Shown here in pieces: positions 2,850 through 28,987 of a stretch of DNA of 40,244 nt (positions are counted from its first letter, which is position 1; the number at the start of each line of letters is the position of its first letter). The stretch is from a virus, in the IMG/VR virus record IMGVR_UViG_3300037459_000186, positions 1 through 40,244 of that record, one strand, 5' to 3'. Under the pieces are notes generated by a model. That model searched no databases. It saw nothing but the letters and a program-made list of their open reading frames with translations, and was not told the DNA's origin. A program made the translations under genes and the position numbers.

Positions 2850-4586
2850 TCACTTTACAGAAACAAACCCCGTCTTCTTCTCGATGGGTATTCCCTTCAT
2901 GGTTTTATAATCCTCGATTAATTTGTCTATGAGCGTATCGGACAGGCTGTCGTAGTGAACTACTCCCTCTTTCCCTTCGTCCAGAATATTGCTGATGTCC
3001 TTGCTCTTCGGAGCTACGATGGTGAAGATGTGCTCATCAATAGTTCCTCTGCCGTAGGTTAAATACACATTGACACTTACCTTCTGACCTATGCGGTGAA
3101 GTCGCTTGAATGGCTGCTCCATATCGTCATGAGTAAAAGGAAAGTTCATGTACACCACATCACGAGCGTTGACAAGGTTGATCCCCACACCGGCAGCTTT
3201 GAAGTTGCCCAGAAATAGAAAACACTCATCATCATCCTTGAACTTGTTGACCAGTGATTGCCGCTTATGAGAATCCACTGTCCCATCAATCTTGACACAA
3301 TTCCCTTCGAACATCACTTCGAGTGCTCTCAGGGCGTCTCTGTATCCTGCGAAGACGACTGTTTTGCGTCCGATCTCCCAGTTGGCCCTGACCATCTCTG
3401 CGATGCCCTTAGCCTTAGCGACCGATGTAATTCTATTAAGAGTGTGGATGTTACCATCAATGGCAATCTTAAGCTTCGCCTTCTCTTTTCCTTCTGCACT
3501 GTCGTATTTCTCCTTCGTTAAAAATATCTCCTCCAACACTTCTTCGTACTCACCATCCAGATCACCGACATCGAAGTAGTACTTCTGCACATTAAGATCC
3601 GGAAGGTCGATACATTCCTCTGTTTTCTTTCTGATCAGGAAGTTGCTCATCTTAAGTTTCAGGTCGTCCATATTCTTCGTTCCGAGAATCTTACCGCCGC
3701 CGAAAGGTTTGCTAGTGCGAGCATAGTCGATCTTGAACTTGCTAAAGTTATTACCCAGCGGATGCCCTACAAGCTTGAAGTAAGCGAATAGGTCGATCAC
3801 ACGGTTCGTAATGGGTGTTCCTGACATCAAGGTCACGCGAGCATCAGAAAAGTGATCTACGAGCTTCTTTACGCTTCCCCACCGTTTTGTCTTGTGGTTT
3901 TTTATCATGTGCGCCTCGTCCAGGATGATGTGGCCGCACTGACTCTTCACGAGCTTACCCCAGTGCTTCTCGATCATCTCGTAATTGATAACCAGAAATC
4001 TTTCCTGCAGGGCAGGCATGCACTTTGACTTCTTCGCGTCCAGAATGGTCCAGTAGAGAGGATTGAAGTTCCAGTCTCTGGTCATATCCTCAAACCAGTT
4101 CCACTTCACCAGCGCAGGGCATACGATGATAGTCCTTCTGATATTGGAGAGCTTGGATACTGTAGCTGACGTAAGGGTCTTTCCAAGCCCCTGCTCGAAA
4201 GCAAGGAAATTGTACTGTCGCGGTATCATCAGATTTACAGCGCTCTTTTGATGCTTAAACATAGCTCTCTGATAATCTGCCTTCTCATCGAACCCATCAA
4301 GGAAATTCTTCTTGACATCAGTATACATCCTCCTCAACTGAAGGAACAGCGCATCCCTAAAAGACTTGTTGGTGATGACCTGCGGGAATACTTGCTTCAT
4401 AAAACCGAACAGAGCGTGACCGCACACTATCCTGATGTCGGCAGCTAGGAACTCACAAGCTTTCTCTTTCCCTTTGCCCGTAGAGACCACAATGTCCAAA
4501 CACTCAGCCAAGAAGAAATCTTCTTCCTTCCATTGCGGCTTGTAGAACCTCACGGTGAACTCGTCTATGATGTCGATGCTTTTCAT
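2850..4586 (-). CDS. SNF2-family DNA helicase/translocase
   Basis: A 578-aa superfamily 2 ATPase. Motif I is EQGLGKTLTSAT, motif II is ILDEAHMIKN, motif III is LMSGTPITN, and the C-terminal RecA lobe ends with AAGVGINL and the motif VI stretch FKRLHRIGQ, the SNF2 signature. It should translocate on double-stranded DNA using ATP, probably in replication, recombination or remodelling. The ATG at 4586 forms an ATGA overlap with the upstream methyltransferase-like gene; a start at 4616 would add 10 residues but overlap more. No nuclease domain is fused. SNF2 helicases are common in the replication modules of large Bacteroidota phages. Confidence 0.9.
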   Translation of the reverse strand: MKSIDIIDEFTVRFYKPQWKEEDFFLAECLDIVVSTGKGKEKACEFLAADIRIVCGHALFGFMKQVFPQVITNKSFRDALFLQLRRMYTDVKKNFLDGFDEKADYQRAMFKHQKSAVNLMIPRQYNFLAFEQGLGKTLTSATVSKLSNIRRTIIVCPALVKWNWFEDMTRDWNFNPLYWTILDAKKSKCMPALQERFLVINYEMIEKHWGKLVKSQCGHIILDEAHMIKNHKTKRWGSVKKLVDHFSDARVTLMSGTPITNRVIDLFAYFKLVGHPLGNNFSKFKIDYARTSKPFGGGKILGTKNMDDLKLKMSNFLIRKKTEECIDLPDLNVQKYYFDVGDLDGEYEEVLEEIFLTKEKYDSAEGKEKAKLKIAIDGNIHTLNRITSVAKAKGIAEMVRANWEIGRKTVVFAGYRDALRALEVMFEGNCVKIDGTVDSHKRQSLVNKFKDDDECFLFLGNFKAAGVGINLVNARDVVYMNFPFTHDDMEQPFKRLHRIGQKVSVNVYLTYGRGTIDEHIFTIVAPKSKDISNILDEGKEGVVHYDSLSDTLIDKLIEDYKTMKGIPIEKKTGFVSVK

Positions 4587-6423: not shown

Positions 6424-6750
6424 TTATAGATGAGTTGTATAATTCAGCACTCTCAACCTTGCTGATTCAAATTCTTCAGCGCTGCACTTTAATTCATCAT
6501 CAAACTCCCAATCAAGATTTTTGAGAGCGCTTCTATCTATATCGTAGCTGTACAATCCGCTGTCGTCACAAAACTCCTGAATAGATATATGATGATCCTT
6601 TGTAATCTTCCCGTAGGTCATGTTGATCGGAGCGCAGATGCAAGGAAGTTTATCTTTCCGATCCGCGTTAGCATCATTTTTGTAGTAGTATGGTAGTTCT
6701 ACATCAATGGTTTCTTTTTGCTCTACGTATCGCGTAACAGTTAATTTCAT
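6424..6750 (-). CDS. Hypothetical 108-aa acidic protein
   Basis: I do not recognise this family. The protein begins MKLTVTRYVEQKETIDVELP, which looks like a beta-strand-rich N-terminus, continues with a charged middle that includes PCICAPINM, and has an acidic C-terminal helix with ALKNLDWEFDDELKCSAEEF. I chose the ATG at 6750. The frame stays open to 6966, but that extension would translate the tRNA-like element and adjoining structured RNA, which is not credible. It is the first gene after the tRNA-like element, so its message may begin with or be processed at that structure. Confidence 0.65.
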   Translation of the reverse strand: MKLTVTRYVEQKETIDVELPYYYKNDANADRKDKLPCICAPINMTYGKITKDHHISIQEFCDDSGLYSYDIDRSALKNLDWEFDDELKCSAEEFESARLRVLNYTTHL

Positions 6751-6781
6751 GATTGTGTTTTTTGAAATGATTGTTAAAAAA

Positions 6782-6858
6782 TTGAACAAGAACGGTATGA
6801 ACTTTGATTCCCGAGTCATCAAAACAACGGCTCCATATTTACTCCGCCGCCTGTTCAA
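6782..6858 (-). other. Structured leader of the 108-aa gene, tRNA-like element downstream flank
   Basis: On the leftward strand TTGAACA (6858-6852) can pair with TGTTCAA (6788-6782), enclosing a second hairpin TTTGAT/ATCAAA with a 9-nt loop (6823-6803). The outer stem is followed by TTTTTTAAC. The layout, a closing stem with an inner arm and a U-rich tail, could be an attenuator or weak terminator between the tRNA-like element and the 6424-6750 gene. Pairing was found by eye only. Confidence 0.35.
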
Positions 6859-6863
6859 CTTAG

Positions 6864-6923
6864 AGATCAGGACGGGACTTGAACCCGCAACCCATAGGCT
6901 CCACCAATCGAGCTGCCTGATCT
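6864..6923 (-). tRNA. tRNA-like element lacking the anticodon arm
   Basis: A 60-nt leftward element folds as a tRNA without an anticodon arm. The acceptor-like stem is AGATCAGG/CCTGATCT (8 bp). Next comes a near-canonical D-arm, GCTC-GATTGGTG-GAGC, with the invariant GG. The T-arm is perfect: GCGGG-TTCAAGT-CCCGT, with the T-loop consensus TTCRANN. Between D- and T-arms there are only 9 nt, where a tRNA needs about 23, so there is no 7-nt anticodon loop. No CCA is encoded. It cannot decode in the normal way. It could be a decayed tRNA, an RNase P or RNase Z processing signal, or a tRNA mimic. Similar elements occur elsewhere in this window. Confidence 0.7.
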
Positions 6924-6964
6924 GCCAAAAGAATGCGCCCAGAAACGTATCAATAGAATCTGTC

Positions 6965-7600
6965 ATCTAGAAAGAACGCATTCAATGGGATTAAATACTA
7001 CCGCCCTCCAAAGCGGAACGCTTCATTGGGACACGATCACTTGCGGATCCCGAAGAATTCCTCTCACGCTCACATGCTACCCCTATCCACGCCTTAGTAC
7101 AGGATAGCACTCTTGGAAATGCCGAGTGGAAAATCTTCCGGACTCTTCTCATTTAGTCCGGACACTCTTTCCTGCCTTATAAGCAGTAGTATTTAAAAAG
7201 GTGAGCGGATTAAAAAAAGCAACACAGCGCTGTCTAAATGTATCAAACCCAACAGTGTGCGCTACAATAATCCTCCGCTCAATATCAATATGTAAAGAAC
7301 TTTCGAATTTAAAGGAGGCGATATTTCACCGCCCCCTTAGTTGCTGCCTCGCTGGGACCGTCCAATAACACCATTAGGGGACGTACGATCAATAGACCCT
7401 CTTCTCTGTTTTAGGTGCTCTTTTGGAGCTTCTTATAAAAAAGGCATCCCCCATCACCAATTATTTGAAATCACCCATCTAACCTAAGTTGAGGCGCGGG
7501 GACTGCTCATAATACTAAACCAGCACCGCCGCAAACACAGACCGGGCTATGAAACCGATCCGGTAATTGAATCTCAAAACAACTACTGGCGGTGCTGGTG
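6965..7600 (-). ncRNA. Candidate large structured non-coding RNA
   Basis: About 635 nt without a credible reading frame on either strand, between the PD-(D/E)XK-like gene and the tRNA-like element. It is dense in stems. A 12-bp pair ACCAGCACCGCC/GGCGGTGCTGGT (7519-7530 with 7588-7599) encloses ACCGG/CCGGT (7541-7545 with 7560-7564). AAGGAGGCG/CGCCCCCTT (7312-7338) has its only mismatch become G-U on the leftward RNA. Others are GAGCGGA/TCCGCTC (7203-7209, 7274-7280), TCCGGACT/AGTCCGGA (7137-7162), CTATCC/GGATAG (7083-7107) and AAGCG/CGCTT (7011-7023). Large ornate RNAs such as GOLLD and ROOL occur in phages next to tRNAs; this is a candidate for that class or a new one. I could not compare it with their consensus. 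Orientation is inferred from the wobble and neighbouring genes. Confidence 0.5.
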
Positions 7601-7602
7601 TA

Positions 7603-8586
7603 TTATTGACCTGCCTTGTCGGCAAGCAGTTCGAGTCTCTTGGCCCTTTGGGGACACACGTGAGCTACGGCGCAGTACTTCTCGCATCGCTTGTCCGATC
7701 CTGGGCGGAACTCAATCTCTCCGTTGCCGTCTCTCTTCATAAGGAAAGCTTCTGCTGCTGCCTGAGAATCGAAGATGCCTCCAGGTAACGCTCTCTTGCC
7801 GCCGACCTTCCTGACGGCGAACTTATCAACTTCATTCCATCGGTCCTCAGCCGTGCATGGCGGTACGGACCCCTCGACAGCTTTCTTGTGAAGCGAAACC
7901 CTCTTGGCTATAATATCTTGAGTCACATCGTCAGCATATATCTGCATACCGATAGTCATCAACGGAAACTCCGGATAGTCCTTGTTCCTCTGGCTGCTGG
8001 AGTAGTCTTTAAAGATAGCTATAACTTCAGCCGTATCAACCTCGTAGCCTTCACCTCTCAACAGATGCGCACAGAGATTTACCTCACCCAGCCACTTCTT
8101 TCTATTCTCAGGGTAGATGTATTGATATACTGAACAGACCTTTATGAATTGTAGCTTCTTTTCGCTCTTGATATAACGATCAACTTTACCGTAGACGGTC
8201 CAGTCACCCACTTCTCGTGAGGCAGTATAGCCACGAAGGATGTCATCATTGAGATCGTAGGAGTCCTTGACGTGCTTCAGGAGCCATTCTCCGGCTTTCT
8301 TCCCGTCTTCTGACTTCATGAGCACTGAAGCCGCCGAAAGTAGCTGAGAGGCCTCCAATGAGTTGCTGTCGCCCTGAGCTACTGCGTCGTGGATGGCATT
8401 GTTCATCAGTAGCCACACCCGATCCATTACATCGACCTCGATGTCGTTGTCTCTCCTGAGGATTCTTATCTGCGGGGAGTCCAACAGCTGACCGACGGAG
8501 ATGTCTCCCTCAACCTTAAAATCATTACTGGTGATTGCTTTCTCAATAGCCGACGGAACGCCGTTATTGTTAGTGTACTTTATCAT
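7603..8586 (-). CDS. PD-(D/E)XK superfamily protein with atypical active site
   Basis: A 327-aa protein resembling the Cas4/RecB-type PD-(D/E)XK family carried by many phages. It has the GKVDRY motif (residues 132-137) for the first acidic residue, a YIYPENRKKW segment after the catalytic strand, an IAIFKDYSSSQ strand, and a C-terminal cysteine cluster, CEKYCAVAHVC, as in iron-sulfur forms. The strand that should carry D/E-x-K reads LQFIKVCS, so the acid appears to be phenylalanine, and the following W-x-x-Q-x-x-x-Y helix reads WLGEVNLC with Glu for Gln. It may be inactive or use another residue. The family normally resects DNA ends. Its stop lies 3 nt from the first stem of the candidate RNA. 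Confidence 0.68.
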   Translation of the reverse strand: MIKYTNNNGVPSAIEKAITSNDFKVEGDISVGQLLDSPQIRILRRDNDIEVDVMDRVWLLMNNAIHDAVAQGDSNSLEASQLLSAASVLMKSEDGKKAGEWLLKHVKDSYDLNDDILRGYTASREVGDWTVYGKVDRYIKSEKKLQFIKVCSVYQYIYPENRKKWLGEVNLCAHLLRGEGYEVDTAEVIAIFKDYSSSQRNKDYPEFPLMTIGMQIYADDVTQDIIAKRVSLHKKAVEGSVPPCTAEDRWNEVDKFAVRKVGGKRALPGGIFDSQAAAEAFLMKRDGNGEIEFRPGSDKRCEKYCAVAHVCPQRAKRLELLADKAGQ

Positions 8587-8612
8587 AAGTTCTCTTGCCG
8601 TTATTACGGTTT

Positions 8613-8620
8613 CAAATGTA
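8613..8620 (-). promoter_or_regulatory. Possible -7 box, TACATTTG
   Basis: On the leftward strand TACATTTG fits the Bacteroidota TAnnTTTG box and lies 27 bp before the nuclease-like start. A TTTG at the expected distance upstream is absent, so this is half a promoter. A small CCGT-TATT-ACGG hairpin follows it. Confidence 0.3.
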
Positions 8621-8640
8621 TGCTAAATTGATGAATTTTC

Positions 8641-8823
8641 CTAGGATTTTCTCTTCAGGTATCTCTCAAGATGATTCAATCTCAAAGCTGCCAATCTTGT
8701 GTTTGCGGCATCGTGACCTTCCGCAGCGAAACAAAGATTAAATTCAGCTATTAATGTTTCGTGATAATCGTTCAATGTCGGAATCTCCAGACTTCTGACG
8801 CCTCCTAAAATAGTTTGACTCAT
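8641..8823 (-). CDS. Hypothetical 60-aa helical protein
   Basis: This is a small, mostly helical protein with a leucine- and arginine-rich C-terminus (ALRLNHLERYLKRKS). Its ATG overlaps the stop of the 176-aa gene upstream as ATGA, which supports a real, translationally coupled gene. I see no known motif. The basic C-terminal helix could bind nucleic acid, but that is only a guess from composition. The downstream gene, the nuclease-like protein, starts 55 bp later after a possible promoter. Confidence 0.6.
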   Translation of the reverse strand: MSQTILGGVRSLEIPTLNDYHETLIAEFNLCFAAEGHDAANTRLAALRLNHLERYLKRKS

Positions 8824-9350
8824 GACTTCACAGATTTAAAATTAGTACCCCTACCCTTATTGGTCAGGTAGTCTTTAGAATTGGGAATGTTTTGCACTCC
8901 CATGACCGCTTCGAGGAATATGATGCAGTCATTGATAAACAGCCTCAGACGATCCTTGGTCATCTTGGACTTATCCTCGGTATAGTAGCCGAACGGTTCT
9001 CCATTCTTAGTCATGGGAACTTTGGCGAACATGCGCTTGAACTCACAGTCTACAAGTACAGCATCCACAAACTCATACCCCGCATTCCTGAAGGCTGGTA
9101 TAGCCACCGACATCAGCGGACCAGCATAGAAGGCGTACATGCGCATCTTCTCGCTCTTGAGCACCGCAGGGGAGAGCTTCAGGTCTAAGGCTATAGGAGC
9201 CTTCCATTCACGATCAGCAATGCCCGGATACGCCATCTGCACGATGTAGTCCTGAAAGTCAGGATTGTCCGTCAGTGGTCTCAGCAGACCTATGCTCCAT
9301 TTCTGATGAATGCCGATCTGATTGGGGGTGAATTTGAAGTTGGCTTTCAT
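8820..9350 (-). CDS. Hypothetical 176-aa protein
   Basis: I do not recognise this protein. It reads as a soluble globular domain: an N-terminal strand region (MKANFKFTPNQIGIHQKW), a segment with LSPAVLKSEKMRMYAFY, a middle section FVDAVLVDCEFKRMFAKVPM, and a basic C-terminal tail ending GRGTNFKSVKS. The ATG at 9350 overlaps the stop of the preceding 33-aa membrane peptide as ATGA and is preferred over an in-frame upstream start that would overlap that whole gene. Its position among DNA-processing genes suggests a replication-related role. Confidence 0.7.
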   Translation of the reverse strand: MKANFKFTPNQIGIHQKWSIGLLRPLTDNPDFQDYIVQMAYPGIADREWKAPIALDLKLSPAVLKSEKMRMYAFYAGPLMSVAIPAFRNAGYEFVDAVLVDCEFKRMFAKVPMTKNGEPFGYYTEDKSKMTKDRLRLFINDCIIFLEAVMGVQNIPNSKDYLTNKGRGTNFKSVKS

Positions 9351-10325: not shown

Positions 10326-10748
10326 TCAATCATTTAAATGTCTCACCTCTTCCCTAAGGAAATTGTACAGAATCGATTTCTGCATCAGTGCTTTCATCTT
10401 CCGCTCTCCTGTTACGCTCTCGACCAGGTTATCGGCCAAGCCCTCACCTCTGATTATCCCTTTGATGATCTTGTCGTAGTCGTGGGTTTTTCCAACCCAC
10501 CTGAGAGCCTTCAGTAAATCTTTCTCAGCTTCCTTCCTGACCTGAGTTTTTTCTACATCCTCAAAAGCGAACGAAGTTACGAAGGTCTCGAAGTTCTGCA
10601 GGAACAGATCTCTCTTGGATTTCCTAAAGTAGGAATGAAGCGCATAGCTACTATCAAAAGCTCTCAGGTCGTTGATCCACTTGTCATCCCTAAAACAATG
10701 GAAGGTGAACCCTATCCTGCCCGAGTCGCGTAGATATTCGTTTATCAT
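10326..10748 (-). CDS. Hypothetical 140-aa helical protein
   Basis: This 140-aa protein is rich in helices and basic residues. It begins MINEYLRDSGRIGFTFHCF and includes YFRKSKRDLFLQNFETF, KEAEKDLLKALRW and ERKMKALMQKSILY. The ATG at 10748 overlaps the stop of the 76-aa gene as ATGA and is preferred over an upstream in-frame ATG at 10793. I know no homologous family. Its composition would fit a DNA-binding or structural adaptor of the replication module. Confidence 0.65.
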   Translation of the reverse strand: MINEYLRDSGRIGFTFHCFRDDKWINDLRAFDSSYALHSYFRKSKRDLFLQNFETFVTSFAFEDVEKTQVRKEAEKDLLKALRWVGKTHDYDKIIKGIIRGEGLADNLVESVTGERKMKALMQKSILYNFLREEVRHLND

Positions 10749-10975
10749 CGCGACCCTCCAGCTCCACCCATGTATCCAAGAAGTCCGCCGCAAGCACCAC
10801 CTTTGTTTTGTGCGCTTCCGAACATCGCGCTCTTGGCAAGATTGCTGCTCATTTTCACTCTTTTCCTGATAGCATCAGCTTCGGTGCTGCCGGATTCGAT
10901 TACCAATGTGTGGATTTGCTTCCTGAGTTTTTCGTTCTCAGCTTTGATCTTCTGGTATGAGGATAGTTTTTTCAT
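10745..10975 (-). CDS. 76-aa coiled-coil protein with Gly-rich tail
   Basis: The first 30 residues form a short coiled coil (MKKLSSYQKIKAENEKLRKQ). A polar middle follows, then a glycine- and cysteine-rich tail (GGACGGLLGYMGGAGGSR) that is probably unstructured. ATGA coupling joins it to the 140-aa gene. The coiled coil suggests it oligomerises; nothing more can be said from the sequence. Confidence 0.6.
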   Translation of the reverse strand: MKKLSSYQKIKAENEKLRKQIHTLVIESGSTEADAIRKRVKMSSNLAKSAMFGSAQNKGGACGGLLGYMGGAGGSR

Positions 10976-14779: not shown

Positions 14780-15205
14780 TTAATCCTGTTTTGCTTCGAG
14801 TATTGCAATGGTTTTCTTCTGGGCCTCAGCCAATTCTTTTAAAATCTGAAGTTGATATTTTAAGCCTTCCAGTTCCGCTTGCCAATTATATCCTGCCGTC
14901 GATCCTAAGAGTCCAGATTTTGCACCATAACCAGCAGGTCTAGCCGTGGATAGTGTCACATCTGCATTATGACCAATAACAAAACCTTTTTCCTTGAAGT
15001 GCACAATATCAAACTCACCGCACTGGAAAATCTTCGCAATCTTCACTAGTTTCTCCCATGTCACTTTGGTTGCTCCGCGTTCCAGTTTTCCGTAGGAGCT
15101 CTGAGAGACTTTCATCTCCTCCGCCATGAATTCCTGCGAAATGTTTTTCAGTATCCGCATTGTACGGATGTTGTCATAAATCTGCTTGCTTTCCTTCTCT
15201 GGCAT
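14780..15205 (-). CDS. XRE regulator with C-terminal coiled coil
   Basis: A 141-aa regulator. The helix-turn-helix is MAEEMKVSQSSYGKLERGAT (residues 27-46), preceded by the usual IRTMRILKNISQEF helix. After a glycine- and serine-rich linker (about 90-108) it ends in a coiled coil (LKYQLQILKELAEAQKKTIA), probably for oligomerisation. This layout is frequent for regulators of Bacteroidota and their phages. It opens the regulator end of the leftward accessory cassette. Its own start lacks a Shine-Dalgarno sequence. Confidence 0.85.
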   Translation of the reverse strand: MPEKESKQIYDNIRTMRILKNISQEFMAEEMKVSQSSYGKLERGATKVTWEKLVKIAKIFQCGEFDIVHFKEKGFVIGHNADVTLSTARPAGYGAKSGLLGSTAGYNWQAELEGLKYQLQILKELAEAQKKTIAILEAKQD

Positions 15206-15226
15206 AATATTGTTGTTAGTACTGGG

Positions 15227-15772
15227 TTACACTACTTTGAATCCGCTGTAATTCAAAACCTCCTCCGCATCCATAGCGGACAATTTCTTGCAGAGATCGA
15301 TTACTTCCTGGCTGGATGTTGTTGAAAGGATGTTGTTTGGAAAATCTTCACACAGTCCCAACCAAACATGGTAGGTCATTTCTTTGTATTCATCCGAAAG
15401 ATTCGGATCACAAATATCAACACACAATACCACGTCCTCGCCAAAATCTTTGAATATCGCATCGACCTTTATGTCTGTAGCACTTTCAGTTGTTGAAAAC
15501 TCAAGCCCAAACAAAGCCATTAGAAGCCTCTGAACAGGTAAAGGTGACCGTGAGGTGTAGATTGAGATGAAAAGGTCTGTAGCGTCCTGCTTTTTGCTTG
15601 CAAGGACTTTCTTCGTGCCTGTGTTCAATGAAAATATGTGAGCGCTGATACAAGAGTAGTTTTCTTTGTATTCCGGATGCTCCATTCCGGGGTTACTAAT
15701 TTTGTTGACAGCAATTGTTATTCCTGCTGCTGCTTTGTCTGTTATCCAGTATAAATTTTCTAGTTGTGACAT
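15227..15772 (-). CDS. Hypothetical 181-aa protein
   Basis: An unrecognised acidic protein. It has an N-terminal alpha/beta look (GITIAVNKIS, CISAHIFSLNTGTKKVL), a middle with PLPVQRLLMALFGLEF, a strand EDVVLCVDICDPN, and a helical C-terminus (SSQEVIDLCKKLSAMDAEEV). A GGAGGA ribosome site lies about 9 nt before the ATG, a feature of this cassette and rare in the rest of the window. It is followed 21 nt later by the XRE regulator. Confidence 0.65.
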   Translation of the reverse strand: MSQLENLYWITDKAAAGITIAVNKISNPGMEHPEYKENYSCISAHIFSLNTGTKKVLASKKQDATDLFISIYTSRSPLPVQRLLMALFGLEFSTTESATDIKVDAIFKDFGEDVVLCVDICDPNLSDEYKEMTYHVWLGLCEDFPNNILSTTSSQEVIDLCKKLSAMDAEEVLNYSGFKVV

Positions 15773-18570: not shown

Positions 18571-18828
18571 TCACCACGTCCTCATGTGACGCGGCATTAA
18601 AAGTCTCCAATCAAGAGTAAGACACTGATTGTTCCCAACTAGCCCCGCTTTGCGCTCTCTTAATCGTGCTAGTACATCTTTAGCGCTTCGGTTGTAGTTG
18701 GCGCCACCATGAGTCATAAAGTCTCCATACACGCCTATAATTGTGTAATCGCTGTTGTTAGAGTGAGGGCAAAATGTAATCTCTAAATCACCATCAATTA
18801 TAACAATTCTGTTTTCTCGGTTATTCAT
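18571..18828 (-). CDS. Hypothetical 85-aa protein
   Basis: The protein begins MNNRENRIVIIDGDLEITFC, a likely beta hairpin, continues with SDYTIIGVYGDFMTHGGAN and a basic helix (SAKDVLARLRERKAGLV), and ends LLMPRHMRTW. No family is recognised. A GGAGGA site precedes the ATG at 18828; the frame open to 18885 would run through the tRNA-like element. The gene follows that element directly, like the 54-aa and 108-aa genes elsewhere. Confidence 0.62.
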   Translation of the reverse strand: MNNRENRIVIIDGDLEITFCPHSNNSDYTIIGVYGDFMTHGGANYNRSAKDVLARLRERKAGLVGNNQCLTLDWRLLMPRHMRTW

Positions 18829-18854
18829 TTTATTCCTCCATTTAAAATTGTTTG

Positions 18855-18906
18855 CACTGCACAAGGGAGTTGAACCCCTGCGCACAGCCTTGAACTGATT
18901 GCAGTG
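18855..18906 (-). tRNA. Mini tRNA-like element lacking the anticodon arm
   Basis: A 52-nt leftward element. The acceptor-like stem is CACTGCA/TGCAGTG (7 bp). The T-arm is complete, AGGGG-TTCAACT-CCCTT, with a TTCRANN loop and one G-U pair that closes only on the leftward RNA. A 3-bp arm, CAG-TTCAAGG-CTG, stands where the D-arm would be. There is no anticodon arm and no CCA. It lies 2 nt after the stop of the 124-aa gene and is followed by AACAATTTTAAATGGAGGA and the start of the 85-aa gene, so it occupies a leader. Its first bases (CACTGCA) match the opening of the two other leaders at 16.2 and 16.6 kb. Confidence 0.65.
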
Positions 18907-18908
18907 TG

Positions 18909-19283
18909 TTAATTTCCTTTCGAGACGTCTTGAAGTTCAATGTCGTCTCTGTAATCTTGCACAGGGGACGACAGAACACCCGAAGCCCACATCATTTGCT
19001 GCTCAATACTTTTGAGTTCGTCGCCTTTCATGCCCGGAAAGCAGTTGAAAGTTTTAGTTGTGCTATCAACAAATGTCAGTTCCAGAACAGGAGTAGCCCA
19101 ATTTGAACCCTGAATCCCTCCAATTGTTGTTTCACTGGTCAGCTCTCTTGAATATTTCTCTGCCTTTGTCCAAACCGTATCAGCTGTCCAGAACCAATCT
19201 TCGTGCATGCCTAATGCAGCACTGTCAAGGTCTTTACTCGAATCTATAATTTGCTTTGCTAGTCTAAAATCGTAGTTAGCCAT
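18909..19283 (-). CDS. Hypothetical 124-aa protein
   Basis: The protein begins MANYDFRLAKQIIDSSKDLD, has a tryptophan-rich segment (HEDWFWTADTVWTKAEKY), a strand pair (WATPVLELTFVDSTTKTFNC) and a C-terminal helix (ELKSIEQQMMWASGVL). I know no family for it. I chose the ATG at 19283, preceded by an AAAGGAA site; an upstream in-frame ATG at 19298 adds five residues. It is the second gene after the leftward promoter region. Confidence 0.65.
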   Translation of the reverse strand: MANYDFRLAKQIIDSSKDLDSAALGMHEDWFWTADTVWTKAEKYSRELTSETTIGGIQGSNWATPVLELTFVDSTTKTFNCFPGMKGDELKSIEQQMMWASGVLSSPVQDYRDDIELQDVSKGN

Positions 19284-19339
19284 AATAATTCCTTTCAAAT
19301 AATAGTTGTTGTTAATACTCAGTAAGTAACAGATAATAA

Positions 19340-19504
19340 TTACGAGACTACACCACAGGCGCTAAGAACGATTGTAATGCCCAATATGATGCCTAGCACT
19401 ATTATTGCATAGTTATCCTCTCTGGGGGTCCGCAAACGCGCTCTATCGTCATTGTGCTGACGTTCTAATACTTCTGTCTGTACTGTCTTTGATAAATTTG
19501 TCAT
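19340..19504 (-). CDS. 54-aa single-pass membrane protein
   Basis: This short gene encodes an N-terminal soluble part of about 31 charged residues (MTNLSKTVQTEVLERQHNDD and a basic stretch) and one transmembrane helix, NYAIIVLGIILGITIVLSAC, ending GVVS. The hydrophobic helix runs to within four residues of the end, as in tail-anchored proteins. It starts 29 nt after a tRNA-like element. A role in superinfection exclusion, membrane signalling or lysis is possible; the sequence does not decide. No Shine-Dalgarno site is visible. Confidence 0.6.
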   Translation of the reverse strand: MTNLSKTVQTEVLERQHNDDRARLRTPREDNYAIIVLGIILGITIVLSACGVVS

Positions 19505-19533
19505 AGTTTCTAGTTGTTTTGAGATTAGTTAGC

Positions 19534-19581
19534 ACCTTGCTGCGGCCTCGAACCGCACTATCACCCATACGTATGCAAGAT
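19534..19581 (-). tRNA. Mini tRNA-like element, acceptor and T-arm only
   Basis: A 48-nt leftward element: a 7-bp acceptor-like stem, ATCTTGC/GCAAGGT with one G-U, joined directly to a perfect T-arm TGCGG-TTCGAGG-CCGCA (5 bp, TTCRANN loop). The 17 nt between the 5' strand and the T-arm can form at most a 3-bp D-like arm, and no anticodon arm exists. Acceptor stem stacked on T-arm is the minimal RNase P substrate. It lies in the leader of the 54-aa membrane protein gene. Confidence 0.65.
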
Positions 19582-19608
19582 GTGTAGGGCCTTTAACCCT
19601 CGAATCAT
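19561..19608 (-). CDS. Possible 15-aa leader peptide
   Basis: ATG at 19608 after GAAAGGAAACAAATT starts the 15-aa frame MIRGLKALHILHTYG, whose stop lies inside the tRNA-like element at 19534-19581. A ribosome translating it would open that structure. It may be a regulatory leader peptide, or a chance frame. Confidence 0.25.
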   Translation of the reverse strand: MIRGLKALHILHTYG

Positions 19609-19642
19609 AATTTGTTTCCTTTCTTCATTCGTGAAATTTCAG

Positions 19643-19696
19643 CACTTTGCCGACCCTGCGAGAGTCTAGCGGATACTCATTGCATCCAACAAAGCG
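19643..19696 (-). ncRNA. Mini tRNA-like element with diverged T-loop
   Basis: A 54-nt leftward element with the same plan as its neighbours: acceptor-like CGCTTTG/CAAAGTG (7 bp, one G-U), 2 nt, a D-like arm GGAT-GCAATGAGT-ATCC, 4 nt, a T-like arm GACT-CTCGCAG-GGTC with a 7-nt loop, 2 nt, and the acceptor 3' strand. Both wobbles (acceptor G-U and T-stem U-G) close only on the leftward RNA. The loop CTCGCAG differs from the TTCRA consensus. No anticodon arm. Confidence 0.45.
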
Positions 19697-20216
19697 AACA
19701 GTCAAAGACAATCGTACTCCAAACTCTGACCCGACTGATAGCGTCTATGCGCTGAACGCAGGTACTAACAAGATGAAATAGAATCGATTGTGATTGCTGT
19801 AAATAATAATTGTAATCTAAGAAAAGGGTATTGAACATCAGCGCCCCCTGTTGGCGCCTTTCGGATTGCATGCCTGCTATCTCAAAGTAAGAGCGTACAC
19901 TATGCCGCTTTAATTATCCTACTCGTTAACCCATGCAACCCATCGGCCACACAGTACGCACACATAGTAGTGAACAAGACTTTAAAATTGATCCTGTCAG
20001 GTGTCTACATGCATCCCAATACGTCAAAGAACCCCGAATCGCTCTATTCATAATACTATCTATTGAATCCCAGTGTGCCGAGTACCACCAACGCAGGTGT
20101 TGTTTATTCATGGGTAACCACTCTAGCTAAGCTATACTACTCGTGAGAGTGTGTTAATGAAAGAAAGATAGTATGTAAAAGAACTCTTGCCGTGTCAGTG
20201 TCGATCACCAACACAA

Positions 20217-20247
20217 CAAAGATAGTATGTTTCCCGTACCACGCAAA
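20217..20247 (-). promoter_or_regulatory. Bacteroidota-type promoter, leftward
   Basis: On the leftward strand TTTG (20247-20244), a 19-nt spacer, and TATCTTTG (20224-20217) match the Bacteroidota primary sigma factor consensus exactly. Transcription should start near 20.21 kb and run into the accessory cassette. The box lies in a 13-bp direct repeat (AAAGATAGTATGT), whose second copy at 20164-20176 is a weaker TATCTTTC. Confidence 0.7.
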
Positions 20248-20281
20248 TTATAATAGAGGTATTTTAGTGTGAGACGGGAAA
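20230..20281. repeat. Operator-like inverted repeat over the promoter
   Basis: TTTCCCGT (20230-20237) and ACGGGAAA (20274-20281) are perfect 8-bp inverted copies 36 bp apart. One arm lies in the spacer between the promoter boxes and the other upstream, a layout suited to a repressor acting as a loop or dimer pair. One of the three XRE regulators in the window may bind it. An RNA stem is excluded for the leftward message because both arms lie upstream of the start. Confidence 0.45.
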
Positions 20282-20476
20282 AATAGGTGTTTATACGTAG
20301 TGCTCGGTAGCATATCAGATAGGAACACGCGACCACCGTAACAGGTGAGCGAGGCAACGTGTAGCCTAGAGCCACGGTGTCCAAGAGCCATAGCGTAGAT
20401 GAGCCGGAGATAGTGAGAGAGGGTATTATTGTATACCCGCACACAATCCCCAGACCAGGATACGCTCATAATACCA

Positions 20477-20504
20477 ATTTAACATAATAATCATTATGTT
20501 AAAT
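20477..20504. repeat. 28-bp AT-rich palindrome
   Basis: ATTTAACATAAT and ATTATGTTAAAT are perfect 12-bp inverted arms around AATC. It stands in a non-coding stretch, 230 bp upstream of the leftward promoter. It may be an operator, or a melting or cruciform site of a replication origin. It has no U-tract and so is unlikely to be a terminator. Confidence 0.55.
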
Positions 20505-20534
20505 AGACACGTAGATGCAGTGATAGCAAGGGCT

Positions 20535-20664
20535 CACAGTGACACGATACATGTTTTCCTTTGAACACGTAAGAAACGCACAGCGAGCCACCAGGAAAAA
20601 GACACAGGCTCACAGCGCCACACAGCACAGTAGCTGAGCGCCACAGCCCACCACGGGCACACAG
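20535..20664. repeat. Eight CACAG repeats (CTGTG on the other strand)
   Basis: CACAG occurs at 20535, 20579, 20603, 20611, 20621, 20626, 20642 and 20660, all on the same strand, several as GCGCCACA or CTCACAG variants. Spacing is irregular, between 5 and 44 bp. Clustered short direct repeats beside an AT-rich palindrome resemble iterons of an origin, but the match is loose. Confidence 0.35.
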
Positions 20665-20821
20665 CTAGCATCTAAGAGCACTTCAATCACTTGGCCTCTC
20701 TCAGTCTCACTTTCAGATTCACTTTGCTTTTCGAAGGGGGAGGGGGCCGTCGCGGGTCCTCAGTACCCCACGCATACCAACTGGTTTTTCACCATGAAAC
20801 TAGGATTCCAAGCAAAAGAAA

Positions 20822-20846
20822 GTCTCAGCCCGTAGATGACTGAGAC
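20822..20846 (-). terminator. Intrinsic terminator after the DNA methyltransferase
   Basis: On the leftward RNA GTCTCAG/CTGAGAC is a 7-bp stem with an 11-nt loop, followed by TTTCTTTTGC. It lies 64 bp after the methyltransferase stop and ends the 20.9-29.4 kb transcript before the control region. A small CCAG/CTGG hairpin precedes it. Confidence 0.7.
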
Positions 20847-20909
20847 CAATTACCAGCAAACACTGGCAATCTAAGAAAATGATGATTATGCTATGATTCC
20901 AACAATAGG

Positions 20910-21954: not shown

Positions 21955-22349
21955 CCTTCTTTGATTTTGGTCTCCATGATGTCCATCCATTCGCTGACGA
22001 TTAGGGAGAGGAGTTCTTTATGGGAGACGGCTTGTATTTCGGCTGTCTTGTGGCGCAGTGTTATTAGTCCGCCGCTGTGGTCTGTGTATGTCCAGGGGTG
22101 TTTTGCGTTCTGGTCTGGAATCTCCTTCTTGATAAATTCTTTGAATACCGCCTCGATTGTTCTTCCTTCGGTGAGGAGTTCCACTTCGCTGATTCCGACA
22201 GTGGCGTACTTGCTTCCGTCCATGTAGGTCACTACGGCGTCATTGATGGTTCCGACAACCAGATTTATTTCTCCGTTCTCGATTTGTACGAGATCAGGCA
22301 CGAATGCCAGTTCGGTCTCTTTGTCCCGGAATTTTAGGTTTAGTTTCAT
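21951..22349 (-). CDS. Hypothetical 132-aa protein
   Basis: A beta-rich N-terminus (MKLNLKFRDKETELAFV, then GEINLVVGTINDAVVTYMDG), a helix with EAVFKEFIKKEIPDQ, and a C-terminal helix ending MDIMETKIKEG. No family is recognised. ATGA overlaps join it to the zinc-finger gene upstream and the zinc-ribbon-like gene downstream. Confidence 0.65.
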   Translation of the reverse strand: MKLNLKFRDKETELAFVPDLVQIENGEINLVVGTINDAVVTYMDGSKYATVGISEVELLTEGRTIEAVFKEFIKKEIPDQNAKHPWTYTDHSGGLITLRHKTAEIQAVSHKELLSLIVSEWMDIMETKIKEG

Positions 22350-26773: not shown

Positions 26774-28054
26774 CTAATTTTCATCGTACTCCTCCTTACT
26801 CACAGGAGTGAAGGTCCCGTCCGCGATGCATTTTCTGAGAATGACTTTCATTCCCTCTTTGTCGATAACCTTGTCTGCTTTAGGATTGAACTGCATGGTC
26901 GACCCCTTGAATCTGTAGGCAATCATATTGTCGGTTTCTTCTAATTCATAATAGAATATTCCTTCTGTTCCCTCTCTCAGTCGCTTCACGTATTGAGGCA
27001 GTCCTTCAATCTCTACCCATCGTCCTTTGTAGCAGATCATCCAGTCCTCCCCTTTGGTGTTAAGCCTTCTGAAAGTATCTGACTCAGCATAATACATGTA
27101 CTCCTTGAATTCCCCCAAATCTCTAAACTCAGGCTTGAGATAAACTTCTCCTGCGTCAGTCACCGCAATAGCGCAGATTATCTTTATCGAGCCACTGCCG
27201 AAGCCTCGCTTGTTTGCTTCGTCTTCCAGTTCTAATTGAGCATAGTTTTCCATGACTGCTTCTGTCGGGTCGGGTTGGTGTTCGTCGTCTACTTCTGAGT
27301 TTTTTTCCATGAACTCCTTTGCTCCGTCAGGAATGTCTTCATAATACCATTCAAAATCACTGGCAATCTCATGATCCTGAGTTAATCCGATAAACCATTT
27401 CCCTTCTGTATAGTTCCCCCACCCCCAGCTAGCTTCAGCATACTTTATACCCACGAGGGTAGGATTGTCAGAGCTAAACACAGGCGGTGCTGACTTCTTG
27501 TGAAGATTGCCCGGACCTACAGTCTCAAAAGGCACAGGGCTCTTCTCCTCCACCAGTTCTTCAAGAGTAGTGGCGATATCGCCTACTGAGTCGGTCTGCA
27601 TGGGCAGGTTCATGCCTAGCCCGTTGAGAATTATGATGGCGTGGTACATGCTGTCGAAGAATACTGTGCTGGTGGGGTATTTGTCTTCTGCGTCGATGAC
27701 CTTGGTGGTATCCATCACCAGCCAGCGCATGTTGTTGTGAGGATTGTCGTCCGAGAGATCCTGGCGCGTCTTGCTCAGGCAGAAGCCGTCGCGGGAGTAT
27801 ATCCGTGTCGTCCTTCCGCTGGAATCGTCAGTGGTCTCCTCAAATCCCATGTATTCGGGTATGAAGGGCTGGTCTGCGAGGTGGAGGCCCATCTTTAGGC
27901 CGTGTTCGAGGTGGGCAAGATCTTTACCTGTCAGGTCGTTGTTGTCAGCCGTCAGGATAGCAATTTGCTGCACAAGTTTTTTATTCTCTTTTACATGCCG
28001 CACGTTTGAACCCGTGATTTGTACAACCTTTTCTTGAAGTTCCTTCTTGTTCAT
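26774..28054 (-). CDS. Hypothetical 426-aa protein
   Basis: The longest unrecognised gene in the leftward arm. It has an N-terminal coiled coil (KKELQEKVVQITGSNVRHVK, residues 2-45). Then comes a domain with YSRDGFCLSKTRQDL and NMRWLVMDTTKVIDAE, a central section with YAEASWGWGNYTEGKWFIGL and SDFEWYYEDIP that recalls the tryptophan-rich DUF551-like domains, and a C-terminal domain including IICAIAVTDAGEVYLKPEF. Several small domains may be fused. It begins 18 nt after the 304-aa gene. Function unknown. Confidence 0.7.
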   Translation of the reverse strand: MNKKELQEKVVQITGSNVRHVKENKKLVQQIAILTADNNDLTGKDLAHLEHGLKMGLHLADQPFIPEYMGFEETTDDSSGRTTRIYSRDGFCLSKTRQDLSDDNPHNNMRWLVMDTTKVIDAEDKYPTSTVFFDSMYHAIIILNGLGMNLPMQTDSVGDIATTLEELVEEKSPVPFETVGPGNLHKKSAPPVFSSDNPTLVGIKYAEASWGWGNYTEGKWFIGLTQDHEIASDFEWYYEDIPDGAKEFMEKNSEVDDEHQPDPTEAVMENYAQLELEDEANKRGFGSGSIKIICAIAVTDAGEVYLKPEFRDLGEFKEYMYYAESDTFRRLNTKGEDWMICYKGRWVEIEGLPQYVKRLREGTEGIFYYELEETDNMIAYRFKGSTMQFNPKADKVIDKEGMKVILRKCIADGTFTPVSKEEYDEN

Positions 28055-28072
28055 CGATATTTCGTATTTGAT

Positions 28073-28987
28073 TTATGTCGCTCTTGTATACTTCTTACGC
28101 ACTGGTTTCCAGCGACTTACACCATGCAAAAAAGAGAAAGTACTCTTCTGTAAACTACCCATAGTAGTTGCCTTGCCTGTTAAACCGTAAGCGTGAGGTG
28201 TGCGCATGGATATGAAGTCGACCTCTCTGGTGAAGACGATGTTGCGATCCTTGCTGAACCACTGCCTGGTCATGCATACCTTCATGTACATCTTCCTGCC
28301 GCTGGGCAGTATGCCGTATGCTCTGCTCTGGCGGATGTTCTTCTCGCACTGGATGAGATTTAAAAATAGGAGCTTCTTCTTTAGGAGGGCTCCTGCGGTT
28401 TTCTTTTTTCCAACTAGTGATCCAAACTTCTGTACTGAAAGTTTTGTTCGTGCATTTCCGCTCGGGCATTTCCTTTGGCCAGTGGTTTTTTTTGTACCTT
28501 TGGCTTCAAGTGCCCCAGAATGACTCTGGAAATCGCGCTTTTTCTTCATAAGATACCCTTGCCGGGTCAAGTTGGCTGCAACTAAAATTGCGGCCAATCT
28601 TGCTTCTAGCACACGGGCATCATCATGAGAGGAGGCTTGAATCATCGTTGAATGAGTGAGCCTGTTATGTTGCAGGCCACTTTTTCTATATAAAGTTTTT
28701 AGATTGCAAAAGACAAGATCCTTTCGATCTTTACGTACCCACCCCAGCTTCTCGAATTGCTTCATGTACATCCTCACGGTACGCTCAGGAACACCAGAGG
28801 AGCGCGATAGCTGCGCTCTGTTGCCCTTATTGACTCGCCCGGCGGTAAATGTATACTTAAGCTTAATGAAGTGCGCATACGCTCTTAAAAGGCCTTGTTC
28901 GGCCAGAGCGGACACCAGGAGTTCGTGAGTTCGAATCTCGATGGTCTTTTCTTGGGTATTGCGATATGTCGTTGTGGTGGGTGTCAA
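28073..28987 (-). CDS. Winged-helix/HTH DNA-binding protein
   Basis: A 304-aa basic protein. Residues about 30-90 form a winged helix: NRAQLSRSSGVPERTVRMYM is the helix-turn-helix and KLGWVRKDRKDLVFCNL the wing. The remaining 200 residues are very basic (KGTKKTTGQRKCPSGNARTK; KKKTAGALLKKKLLFLNLIQ) and contain a repeated YMK and RQWFSKDRNIVFTREV segment. Such proteins in Bacteroidota elements include replication initiators and regulators. It is the first large gene after the leftward terminator at 29.05 kb. Confidence 0.7.
   Translation of the reverse strand: MTPTTTTYRNTQEKTIEIRTHELLVSALAEQGLLRAYAHFIKLKYTFTAGRVNKGNRAQLSRSSGVPERTVRMYMKQFEKLGWVRKDRKDLVFCNLKTLYRKSGLQHNRLTHSTMIQASSHDDARVLEARLAAILVAANLTRQGYLMKKKRDFQSHSGALEAKGTKKTTGQRKCPSGNARTKLSVQKFGSLVGKKKTAGALLKKKLLFLNLIQCEKNIRQSRAYGILPSGRKMYMKVCMTRQWFSKDRNIVFTREVDFISMRTPHAYGLTGKATTMGSLQKSTFSFLHGVSRWKPVRKKYTRAT

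What the first reader, a model, noticed from the sequence alone, without database searches (positions are those of the whole stretch)
6965..7600. 635-nt candidate large structured RNA next to the 6.87-kb tRNA-like element
Seen: no reading frame, at least eight stems of 5-12 bp, one whose mismatch becomes G-U on the leftward RNA, and a tRNA-like element 40 nt beyond. The gene density elsewhere is near one per 300 bp, so an empty 635 bp is exceptional. Known: the large RNAs GOLLD and ROOL are found in phages and often near tRNAs. Inference: this may be one of these, or a new class in Bacteroidota phages.
Basis: partly seen in the sequence, partly recalled or inferred. Interest (0 to 1): 0.82.

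Follow-up and report, generated by a model that had tools for sequence, protein, structure and literature searches.

The report
Large phage RNA with armless tRNA
A phage genome has a stretch of about 700 bases that probably makes a large folded RNA ending in a tRNA-shaped element with no anticodon arm; armless elements of the same kind turn up in many other phages, in one case directly behind the known giant RNA GOLLD, which suggests that they mark or protect RNA ends and do not take part in translation.

Summary
The observation largely holds. On the minus strand, 7607-6925 is a protein-free, strongly structured region (z -4.8 minus, -2.8 plus). It ends 9 nt before a tRNA-like element (TLS) at 6922-6864. 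This TLS keeps perfect acceptor, D and T arms, but 9 nt replace the anticodon arm, so it cannot decode.

No Rfam large RNA matches (GOLLD and ROOL models tested), and no nucleotide homologue was found, so covariation of the 680-nt part is untested.

The TLS is not a relic. Armless TLSs recur across IMG/VR phages: 59 of 120 pattern matches carry a perfect 7-bp acceptor, against 0.8% in the control. A covariance model built from 40 others finds the window TLS at E 1e-19.

GOLLD shows the same architecture. In 11 streptococcal phage loci its 3' end is followed 3-10 nt later by a canonical tRNA, an armless TLS or a TLS with a 63-nt insert (7 loci), or by a degenerate T-arm-like sequence (4 loci).

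Best explanation: an operon-encoded ornate RNA whose 3' end is set or capped by a translation-dead tRNA mimic, through RNase P and possibly RNase Z or CCA addition. This RNA class would be new; GOLLD/ROOL membership is not met. Processing, expression and function are inferred, not shown.

The parts
7511..7607 (-). 5' hairpin of the RNA: 20-nt arms 7607-7588 and 7530-7511, overlapping the stop codon of the exonuclease gene; candidate upstream processing site (inferred)
   Evidence: inverted repeat, 90% complementary; z -5.95 on minus for 7507-7607; pair probability 0.94-1.00
6925..7510 (-). body of the candidate large structured RNA (multibranched); main helices 7453-7445/7383-7375, 7338-7327/7323-7312, 7281-7274/7209-7202, 7196-7181/7006-6991, 7162-7155/7144-7137, 6983-6976/6938-6931
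   Evidence: z -3.05 minus, -1.22 plus for 6925-7505; helices with pair probability 0.90-0.99; no ORF over 55 aa wholly inside; no Rfam match
6864..6922 (-). armless tRNA-like element: acceptor 6922-6916/6871-6865, D arm 6913-6898, 9-nt linker 6897-6889 in place of the anticodon arm, T arm 6888-6872, discriminator position U6864, no encoded CCA
   Evidence: Rfam tRNA 31.7 bits; armless-TLS model R1 52.7 bits, E 1e-19; only strong hit of the TLS scan in the window
6855..6863 (-). 3' strand of a candidate closing helix P1 (CTAAGTTGA) pairing with 7492-7484 (TCAACTTAG), starting at the base next to the TLS
   Evidence: 9 bp, pair probability 0.80, but 17 of 300 shuffles do as well: weak
6776..6858 (-). 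downstream leader with TTGAAC...GTTCAA and a T6 run (6781-6776): possible weak terminator, uncertain
   Evidence: sequence; fold z -1.49 only; not called by the terminator scan
7603..8586 (-). upstream gene: PD-(D/E)XK-type phage exonuclease
   Evidence: phrog_2139, E 3e-36; tblastn matches annotated PD-(D/E)XK nuclease or exonuclease
6424..6750 (-). downstream small ORF of 108 aa, no known family

Best explanation
A leftward phage operon encodes a structured noncoding RNA of about 680 nt between the exonuclease gene and the next small gene. It is probably excised from the operon transcript: the long 5' hairpin (7607-7511) would be the upstream processing site, and the armless tRNA-like element the downstream module. 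The acceptor/T-arm stack with its elbow is what RNase P measures, so RNase P would cut just 5' of 6922 and release the 3' end of the large RNA; RNase Z or CCA addition could act at 6864, or the TLS could stay attached as a protective 3' cap. Without an anticodon arm the TLS cannot serve in translation. It works like the tRNA or tRNA mimic that directly follows GOLLD in streptococcal phages, and like mascRNA behind MALAT1. Shown here: the TLS anatomy, its membership of a recurring phage class, and the shared large-RNA-then-TLS architecture. Inferred: expression, processing, and the function of the large RNA (likely a structural or scaffold RNA made during infection, by analogy with GOLLD and ROOL).
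For: Strand-specific fold. TLS with all three stems perfect and no anticodon arm. Armless TLSs recur in phages: 59 of 120 unique matches with a 7/7 acceptor against 0.8% control, 96 of 120 with the free T-stem pairs against 5.3% expected; acceptor and T-stem pairs vary with pairing kept in 40 elements. GOLLD followed after 3 nt by an armless TLS in L270, after 4 nt by a TLS with a 63-nt insert in L328, after 8-10 nt by tRNAs in five more loci; ROOL followed after 10 nt by a tRNA in L242. RNase P recognises the T-arm/acceptor stack and cleaves non-tRNA substrates that present it (PMC4919913).
Against: No homologue of the 680-nt body and hence no covariation. No transcript data. Some coding windows of the phage fold with similar z. 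The syntenic slot in relatives holds different noncoding sequence, with non-significant folds. The TLS body can also form a competing D-arm pairing in the MFE of the long transcript.
Confidence: 0.5

Rival explanations
1. The TLS alone is functional, as a punctuation or stability element of the phage mRNA. The upstream 635 nt is ordinary, rapidly evolving intergenic sequence (decayed genes or an operon UTR) that folds well by chance and because of one strong hairpin.
For: Many armless TLSs sit between genes with only short gaps on both sides and no large RNA. No homologue of the body. Background windows with similar z exist. The same slot in relatives holds unrelated sequence or none.
Against: Minus-strand folding excess persists without the hairpin (z -3.05 against -1.22 on plus), and several long helices have pair probability above 0.9. 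The region is long and free of ORFs in a phage that otherwise has few gaps of this size.
Confidence: 0.3
2. The TLS is an integral domain of one long RNA closed by helix P1 (7492-7484/6863-6855), comparable to the tRNA-like domain of tmRNA, and is not cut off.
For: Perfect 9-bp P1 whose 3' strand starts at the base after the TLS. Related phages carry tRNA elbows with long inserts in place of the anticodon arm, and permuted tmRNA genes occur in the lineage.
Against: P1 is reached by 17 of 300 shuffles. No comparable closing helix in the other TLS loci tested.
Confidence: 0.12
3. A decayed tRNA gene: the anticodon arm was lost and the element is a pseudogene without function.
For: Annotation pipelines label such elements undetermined tRNA (Danklef_1: tRNA-OTHER, Undet NNN).
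Against: All three remaining stems are perfect. Dozens of independent phage elements keep full acceptor pairing with diverse sequences, with compensatory T-stem changes between homologues (L171/L209, L217/L229). Random decay would not spare exactly these arms.
Confidence: 0.05
4. The large RNA is a highly divergent GOLLD or ROOL below the detection limit of the Rfam models.
For: Same size range, phage setting, and a tRNA-like element directly behind it, as for GOLLD.
Against: No match to either model even at E up to 10 with permissive filters; no match in 32 related records.
Confidence: 0.05

Closest known systems
GOLLD RNA (RF02032)
   Same: Large structured phage RNA; 3' end followed within 3-10 nt by a tRNA, an armless TLS or a TLS with an insert in seven of 11 streptococcal loci, and by a degenerate T-arm-like sequence in the other four
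   Different: No covariance-model match; different phage lineage; homo-oligomeric cage not testable here
ROOL RNA (RF03087)
   Same: Similar size (574-position model); encoded in phages near tRNAs (PMC12286853); in L242 a tRNA starts 10 nt behind it
   Different: No covariance-model match
tRNA (RF00005)
   Same: 7-bp acceptor, D arm with GG, T arm with TTCAAGT
   Different: No anticodon arm; not callable by ARAGORN; scores far better with the armless model (52.7 against 31.7 bits)
MALAT1/mascRNA and other RNase P-cut tRNA-like 3' modules
   Same: Long noncoding RNA followed by a tRNA-like element; RNase P substrate by shape (PMC4919913)
   Different: Bacterial virus, unrelated sequence; cleavage not shown here
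tmRNA and the engineered 'tRNA scaffold'
   Same: tRNA acceptor, D and T arms with the anticodon arm given up for other RNA (PMC3753655); related phages have such elements naturally
   Different: In the window the arm is deleted with no insert; no tag frame; the large RNA lies 5' of the TLS, not inside it
tRNAOther of Bacillus cereus and 'undetermined' phage tRNAs (Polaribacter phage Danklef_1)
   Same: tRNA-like elements not used in translation (PMC3399842 abstract); the Danklef_1 element is armless
   Different: None of the papers found describes a phage class lacking the anticodon arm (open-access library only). The B. cereus structure was not compared here

Membership tests
GOLLD | match to the RF02032 covariance model (conserved 3' domain) | tested here: not met
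   no match in the window up to E 10; the library rings in L270 and L323
GOLLD | encoded in a phage next to a tRNA or tRNA-like element | tested here: met
   TLS 9 nt behind the last predicted helix
GOLLD | homo-oligomeric RNA cage | not testable with these tools
   needs cryo-EM or similar (PMC12286853 for GOLLD)
ROOL | match to the RF03087 covariance model | tested here: not met
   no match; the library rings in L242
ROOL | homo-oligomeric RNA cage | not testable with these tools
   needs cryo-EM or similar
canonical tRNA | acceptor, D and T arms | tested here: met
canonical tRNA | anticodon arm | tested here: not met
   only 9 nt (CTATGGGTT) between D and T arms; ARAGORN finds no gene
armless phage TLS class (defined here) | three stems kept, linker too short for an anticodon arm, match to model R1 | tested here: met
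   52.7 bits, E 1e-19, window sequence not in the training set
tmRNA | tRNA-like domain plus tag reading frame | tested here: not met
   no tmRNA by ARAGORN or Rfam in the window
RNase P substrate | T-arm/acceptor coaxial stack of 12 bp | tested here: met
   7 + 5 bp by sequence
RNase P substrate | cleavage at the 5' end of the TLS | not testable with these tools
   needs in vitro cleavage or end mapping

The most novel reading that the evidence does not exclude
Phages use a widespread, so far undescribed RNA module: a tRNA mimic with the anticodon arm deleted or replaced, kept only as an RNase P/CCA punctuation or 3' cap element and used in particular to finish giant ornate RNAs. The window encodes both such a module and a first member of a new ornate RNA class in Bacteroidota phages.
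Probability: 0.35. Interest if true: 0.88.

Novelty: new variant of a known kind. Interest (0 to 1): 0.72.

Why it matters
GOLLD and ROOL form RNA-only cages of unknown function, and why they sit next to tRNAs is unexplained. Armless TLSs behind GOLLD and behind this new RNA suggest an answer that can be tested directly: the neighbour is there for its shape, as a processing site or cap, and not for translation. It also gives a cheap signature (an armless TLS) for finding further large phage RNAs, and it means that some 'undetermined' phage tRNA annotations are probably functional non-tRNAs.

Tried and rejected
- BLASTN and whole-record searches for homologues of the 680-nt body in phages, 47 related viral records and 395 Bacteroidota genomes: none.
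- Close relatives through the exonuclease, ATPase and helicase genes in IMG/VR: none; only terminase alignments reached the lineage.
- GOLLD or ROOL membership: rejected on covariance-model evidence.
- Folds of the G011 and G002 slots as homologous large RNAs: different sequence and not significant, so the slot, not the RNA, is shared.
- The closing helix P1 as proof of an integral TLS: only p of about 0.06.
- A Bacteroidota-type promoter just upstream of the RNA: none in the stretch examined. A sigma-70-like site at 7296-7267 is within chance.
- A 981-nt 'TLS' in the window (30707-31737) was rejected as a chance hit inside the terminase gene.
- Enrichment of armless TLSs in phages over bacteria: 31 viral stretches against 20 in 257 Gb of bacterial genomes, of which 6 have perfect stems and 2 of those are identical to viral records. 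The viral collection's size in bases is not given, so no ratio is claimed.

Full report
WHAT IS THERE. The window is a 40,244-bp viral record. Its ATPase is related to those of Alistipes, Parabacteroides and Flavobacterium phages as well as Arthrobacter phages, and its primase has a BT4734-like domain, so a Bacteroidota host is likely. On the minus strand the order is: a PD-(D/E)XK-type exonuclease gene (8586-7603), the noncoding region, a small ORF (6750-6424), and an AAA ATPase (6405-5074). The noncoding region has no ORF above 55 aa lying wholly inside it.

FOLD. Minus-strand RNA 7610-6925 has MFE -233.6 kcal/mol against a shuffled mean of -200.0 (z -4.77, 0 of 100 shuffles). The plus strand gives z -2.78. 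Without the 5' hairpin the values are -3.05 and -1.22. The 5' hairpin alone has z -5.95 and the 6985-7200 domain z -3.7. Caution: some other windows of the same phage reach z -3 to -4.7, so folding energy alone does not prove an RNA gene.

THE tRNA-LIKE ELEMENT. At 6922-6864 (-): GATCAGG CA GCTC GATTGGTG GAGC CTATGGGTT GCGGG TTCAAGT CCCGT CCTGATC T. All pairs of the acceptor, D and T stems form, and the loops carry GG and TTCAAGT. Only 9 nt stand where the anticodon arm should be. Rfam gives 31.7 bits as tRNA and ARAGORN none.

RELATIVES OF THE PHAGE. Terminase alignments reached a lineage of related phages. Their records hold many tRNA-like elements whose anticodon arm is missing or replaced by other sequence: 13, 42, 55, 57, 58, 67, 78, 93, 128 and 168 nt between D and T arms, against 22-23 in the ordinary tRNAs of the same records. 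In G011 a TLS (44507-44612) lies in the same exonuclease-to-ATPase slot, followed by about 275 nt of noncoding DNA with a GCGTG...CACGC hairpin and T run. In G002 a TLS with a 168-nt insert (22095-22313) lies between ATPase and helicase. G012 has no gap in the slot. The sequences of these slots are not alike and their folds are not significant, so the large RNA of the window is not shared in a recognisable form.

ARMLESS TLSs ARE A CLASS. With a later scan there were 120 unique matches: 59 have a perfect 7-bp acceptor (control 0.8%), 96 have all three free T-stem pairs (expected 5.3%), and 47 have both plus the D-stem partner GCTC. They lie between genes, nearly always with the upstream gene on the same strand. 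In 40 aligned elements, acceptor and T-stem columns vary widely with pairing kept (covariation score 0.82 against 0.17 shuffled; slid controls 0.11-0.16). The rows were chosen for good pairing, apart from the Danklef_1 element, so this is descriptive; the unselected fractions are the test. Elements such as L171/L209 and L217/L229 differ by compensatory T-stem changes. A covariance model from the 40, none of them the window's, finds the window TLS at 52.7 bits, E 1e-19. In bacterial genomes a stricter pattern hit 20 stretches in 257 Gb; 6 have perfect stems, and 2 of those (L286, L292) are identical to viral records. The isolated Polaribacter phage Danklef_1 has one, annotated 'tRNA-OTHER, Undet NNN'.

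LINK TO GIANT RNAs. In L270 GOLLD (6773-7161) is followed after 3 nt by an armless TLS (7165-7223). In ten further streptococcal phage loci the GOLLD 3' end is followed by tRNA-Phe (8 nt), tRNA-Ser (10 nt, three loci), a tRNA with anticodon TTA (8 nt), a TLS with a 63-nt insert (4 nt), or, in four, a degenerate element of which only the T arm is clear. The ten are not all independent: several are near-identical phages. ROOL in L242 has a tRNA 10 nt behind it. The identity of the tRNA changes and the anticodon arm may be lost, but a tRNA shape directly behind the RNA stays. The literature found says 'near tRNA islands' or 'tRNAs in the linker' (PMC12286853) and reports a pseudo-tRNA inside a mycobacterial GOLLD gene (PMC6582537).

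MECHANISM. RNase P measures the T-arm/acceptor stack and cleaves other RNAs that present it, including long noncoding RNAs such as MALAT1 (PMC4919913). An armless TLS keeps exactly this part. The most likely reading is that the operon transcript is processed at the 5' hairpin and at the TLS, leaving a large RNA with a defined 3' end, or that the TLS is matured and stays as a cap. The last predicted helix ends at 6931, and CTTTTGGCA separates it from the TLS. An alternative, an integral TLS closed by the 9-bp helix 7492-7484/6863-6855, has weak support (17 of 300 shuffles). What the large RNA does is unknown; by analogy with GOLLD and ROOL a structural or scaffold role in infection is the best guess, and it is only that.

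MEMBERSHIP AND NOVELTY. The window RNA is not GOLLD or ROOL by the Rfam models (positive controls). It works in the same arrangement. I rate it a new variant of a known kind: a probable new large phage RNA with a translation-dead tRNA mimic behind it. The armless TLS class is the firmer and, as far as the open-access searches show, undescribed part.

Noticed in passing
window 19284-20909: A second, larger ORF-poor region of 1.6 kb. It and its counterparts in G001 (52416-54368), G002 (6824-9131), G011 (27209-28898) and G012 (59618-61356) share CTAYTTAACATAAT; in the window this is part of a palindrome (AACATAAT-GATT-ATTATGTT). Possible origin, promoter or regulator site, or another large RNA.
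   Followed up: partly
window 18855-18905 (-): A second, even smaller tRNA-like element: acceptor (CACTGCA/TGCAGTG) and T arm only, 15.6 bits, E 6e-4 with model R1, just upstream of a GGAGG and ATG start.
   Followed up: partly
window 19534-19581 (-): By eye, a third acceptor-plus-T-arm element: ATCTTGC ... TGCGG TTCGAGG CCGCA GCAAGGT, inside the 1.6-kb gap (sequence).
   Followed up: no
L028 2804-3152 (-) (G001), L165 366-706 (-) (G019): Permuted tmRNA genes in phages of this lineage (ARAGORN; Rfam RF04321 at 67 bits for G001); a similar 3' piece is seen in G009.
   Followed up: partly
G001 56157-56358 and 60587-60917, G002 22095-22313, G020 15200-15327, 18801-18916 and 35175-35283 (L154, L155): tRNA elbows whose anticodon arm is extended or replaced by inserts of tens to 168 nt: natural counterparts of the engineered 'tRNA scaffold'.
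   Followed up: partly
L200 (IMGVR_UViG_2529292852_000001) 350-410, 2052-2113, 3556-3610, 10701-10761 (-): A 180-kb phage record with several short tRNA-like elements, three of them armless by the pattern, two of which are followed by ATTGGAG, plus a HEARO RNA.
   Followed up: no
L328 1096-1208 (Streptococcus phage Javan584), L327 2415-2525 (phi5218): Unannotated TLSs with inserts of 61-63 nt in place of the anticodon arm; the one in Javan584 is directly behind GOLLD, the one in phi5218 lies between the late regulator and HNH genes.
   Followed up: partly
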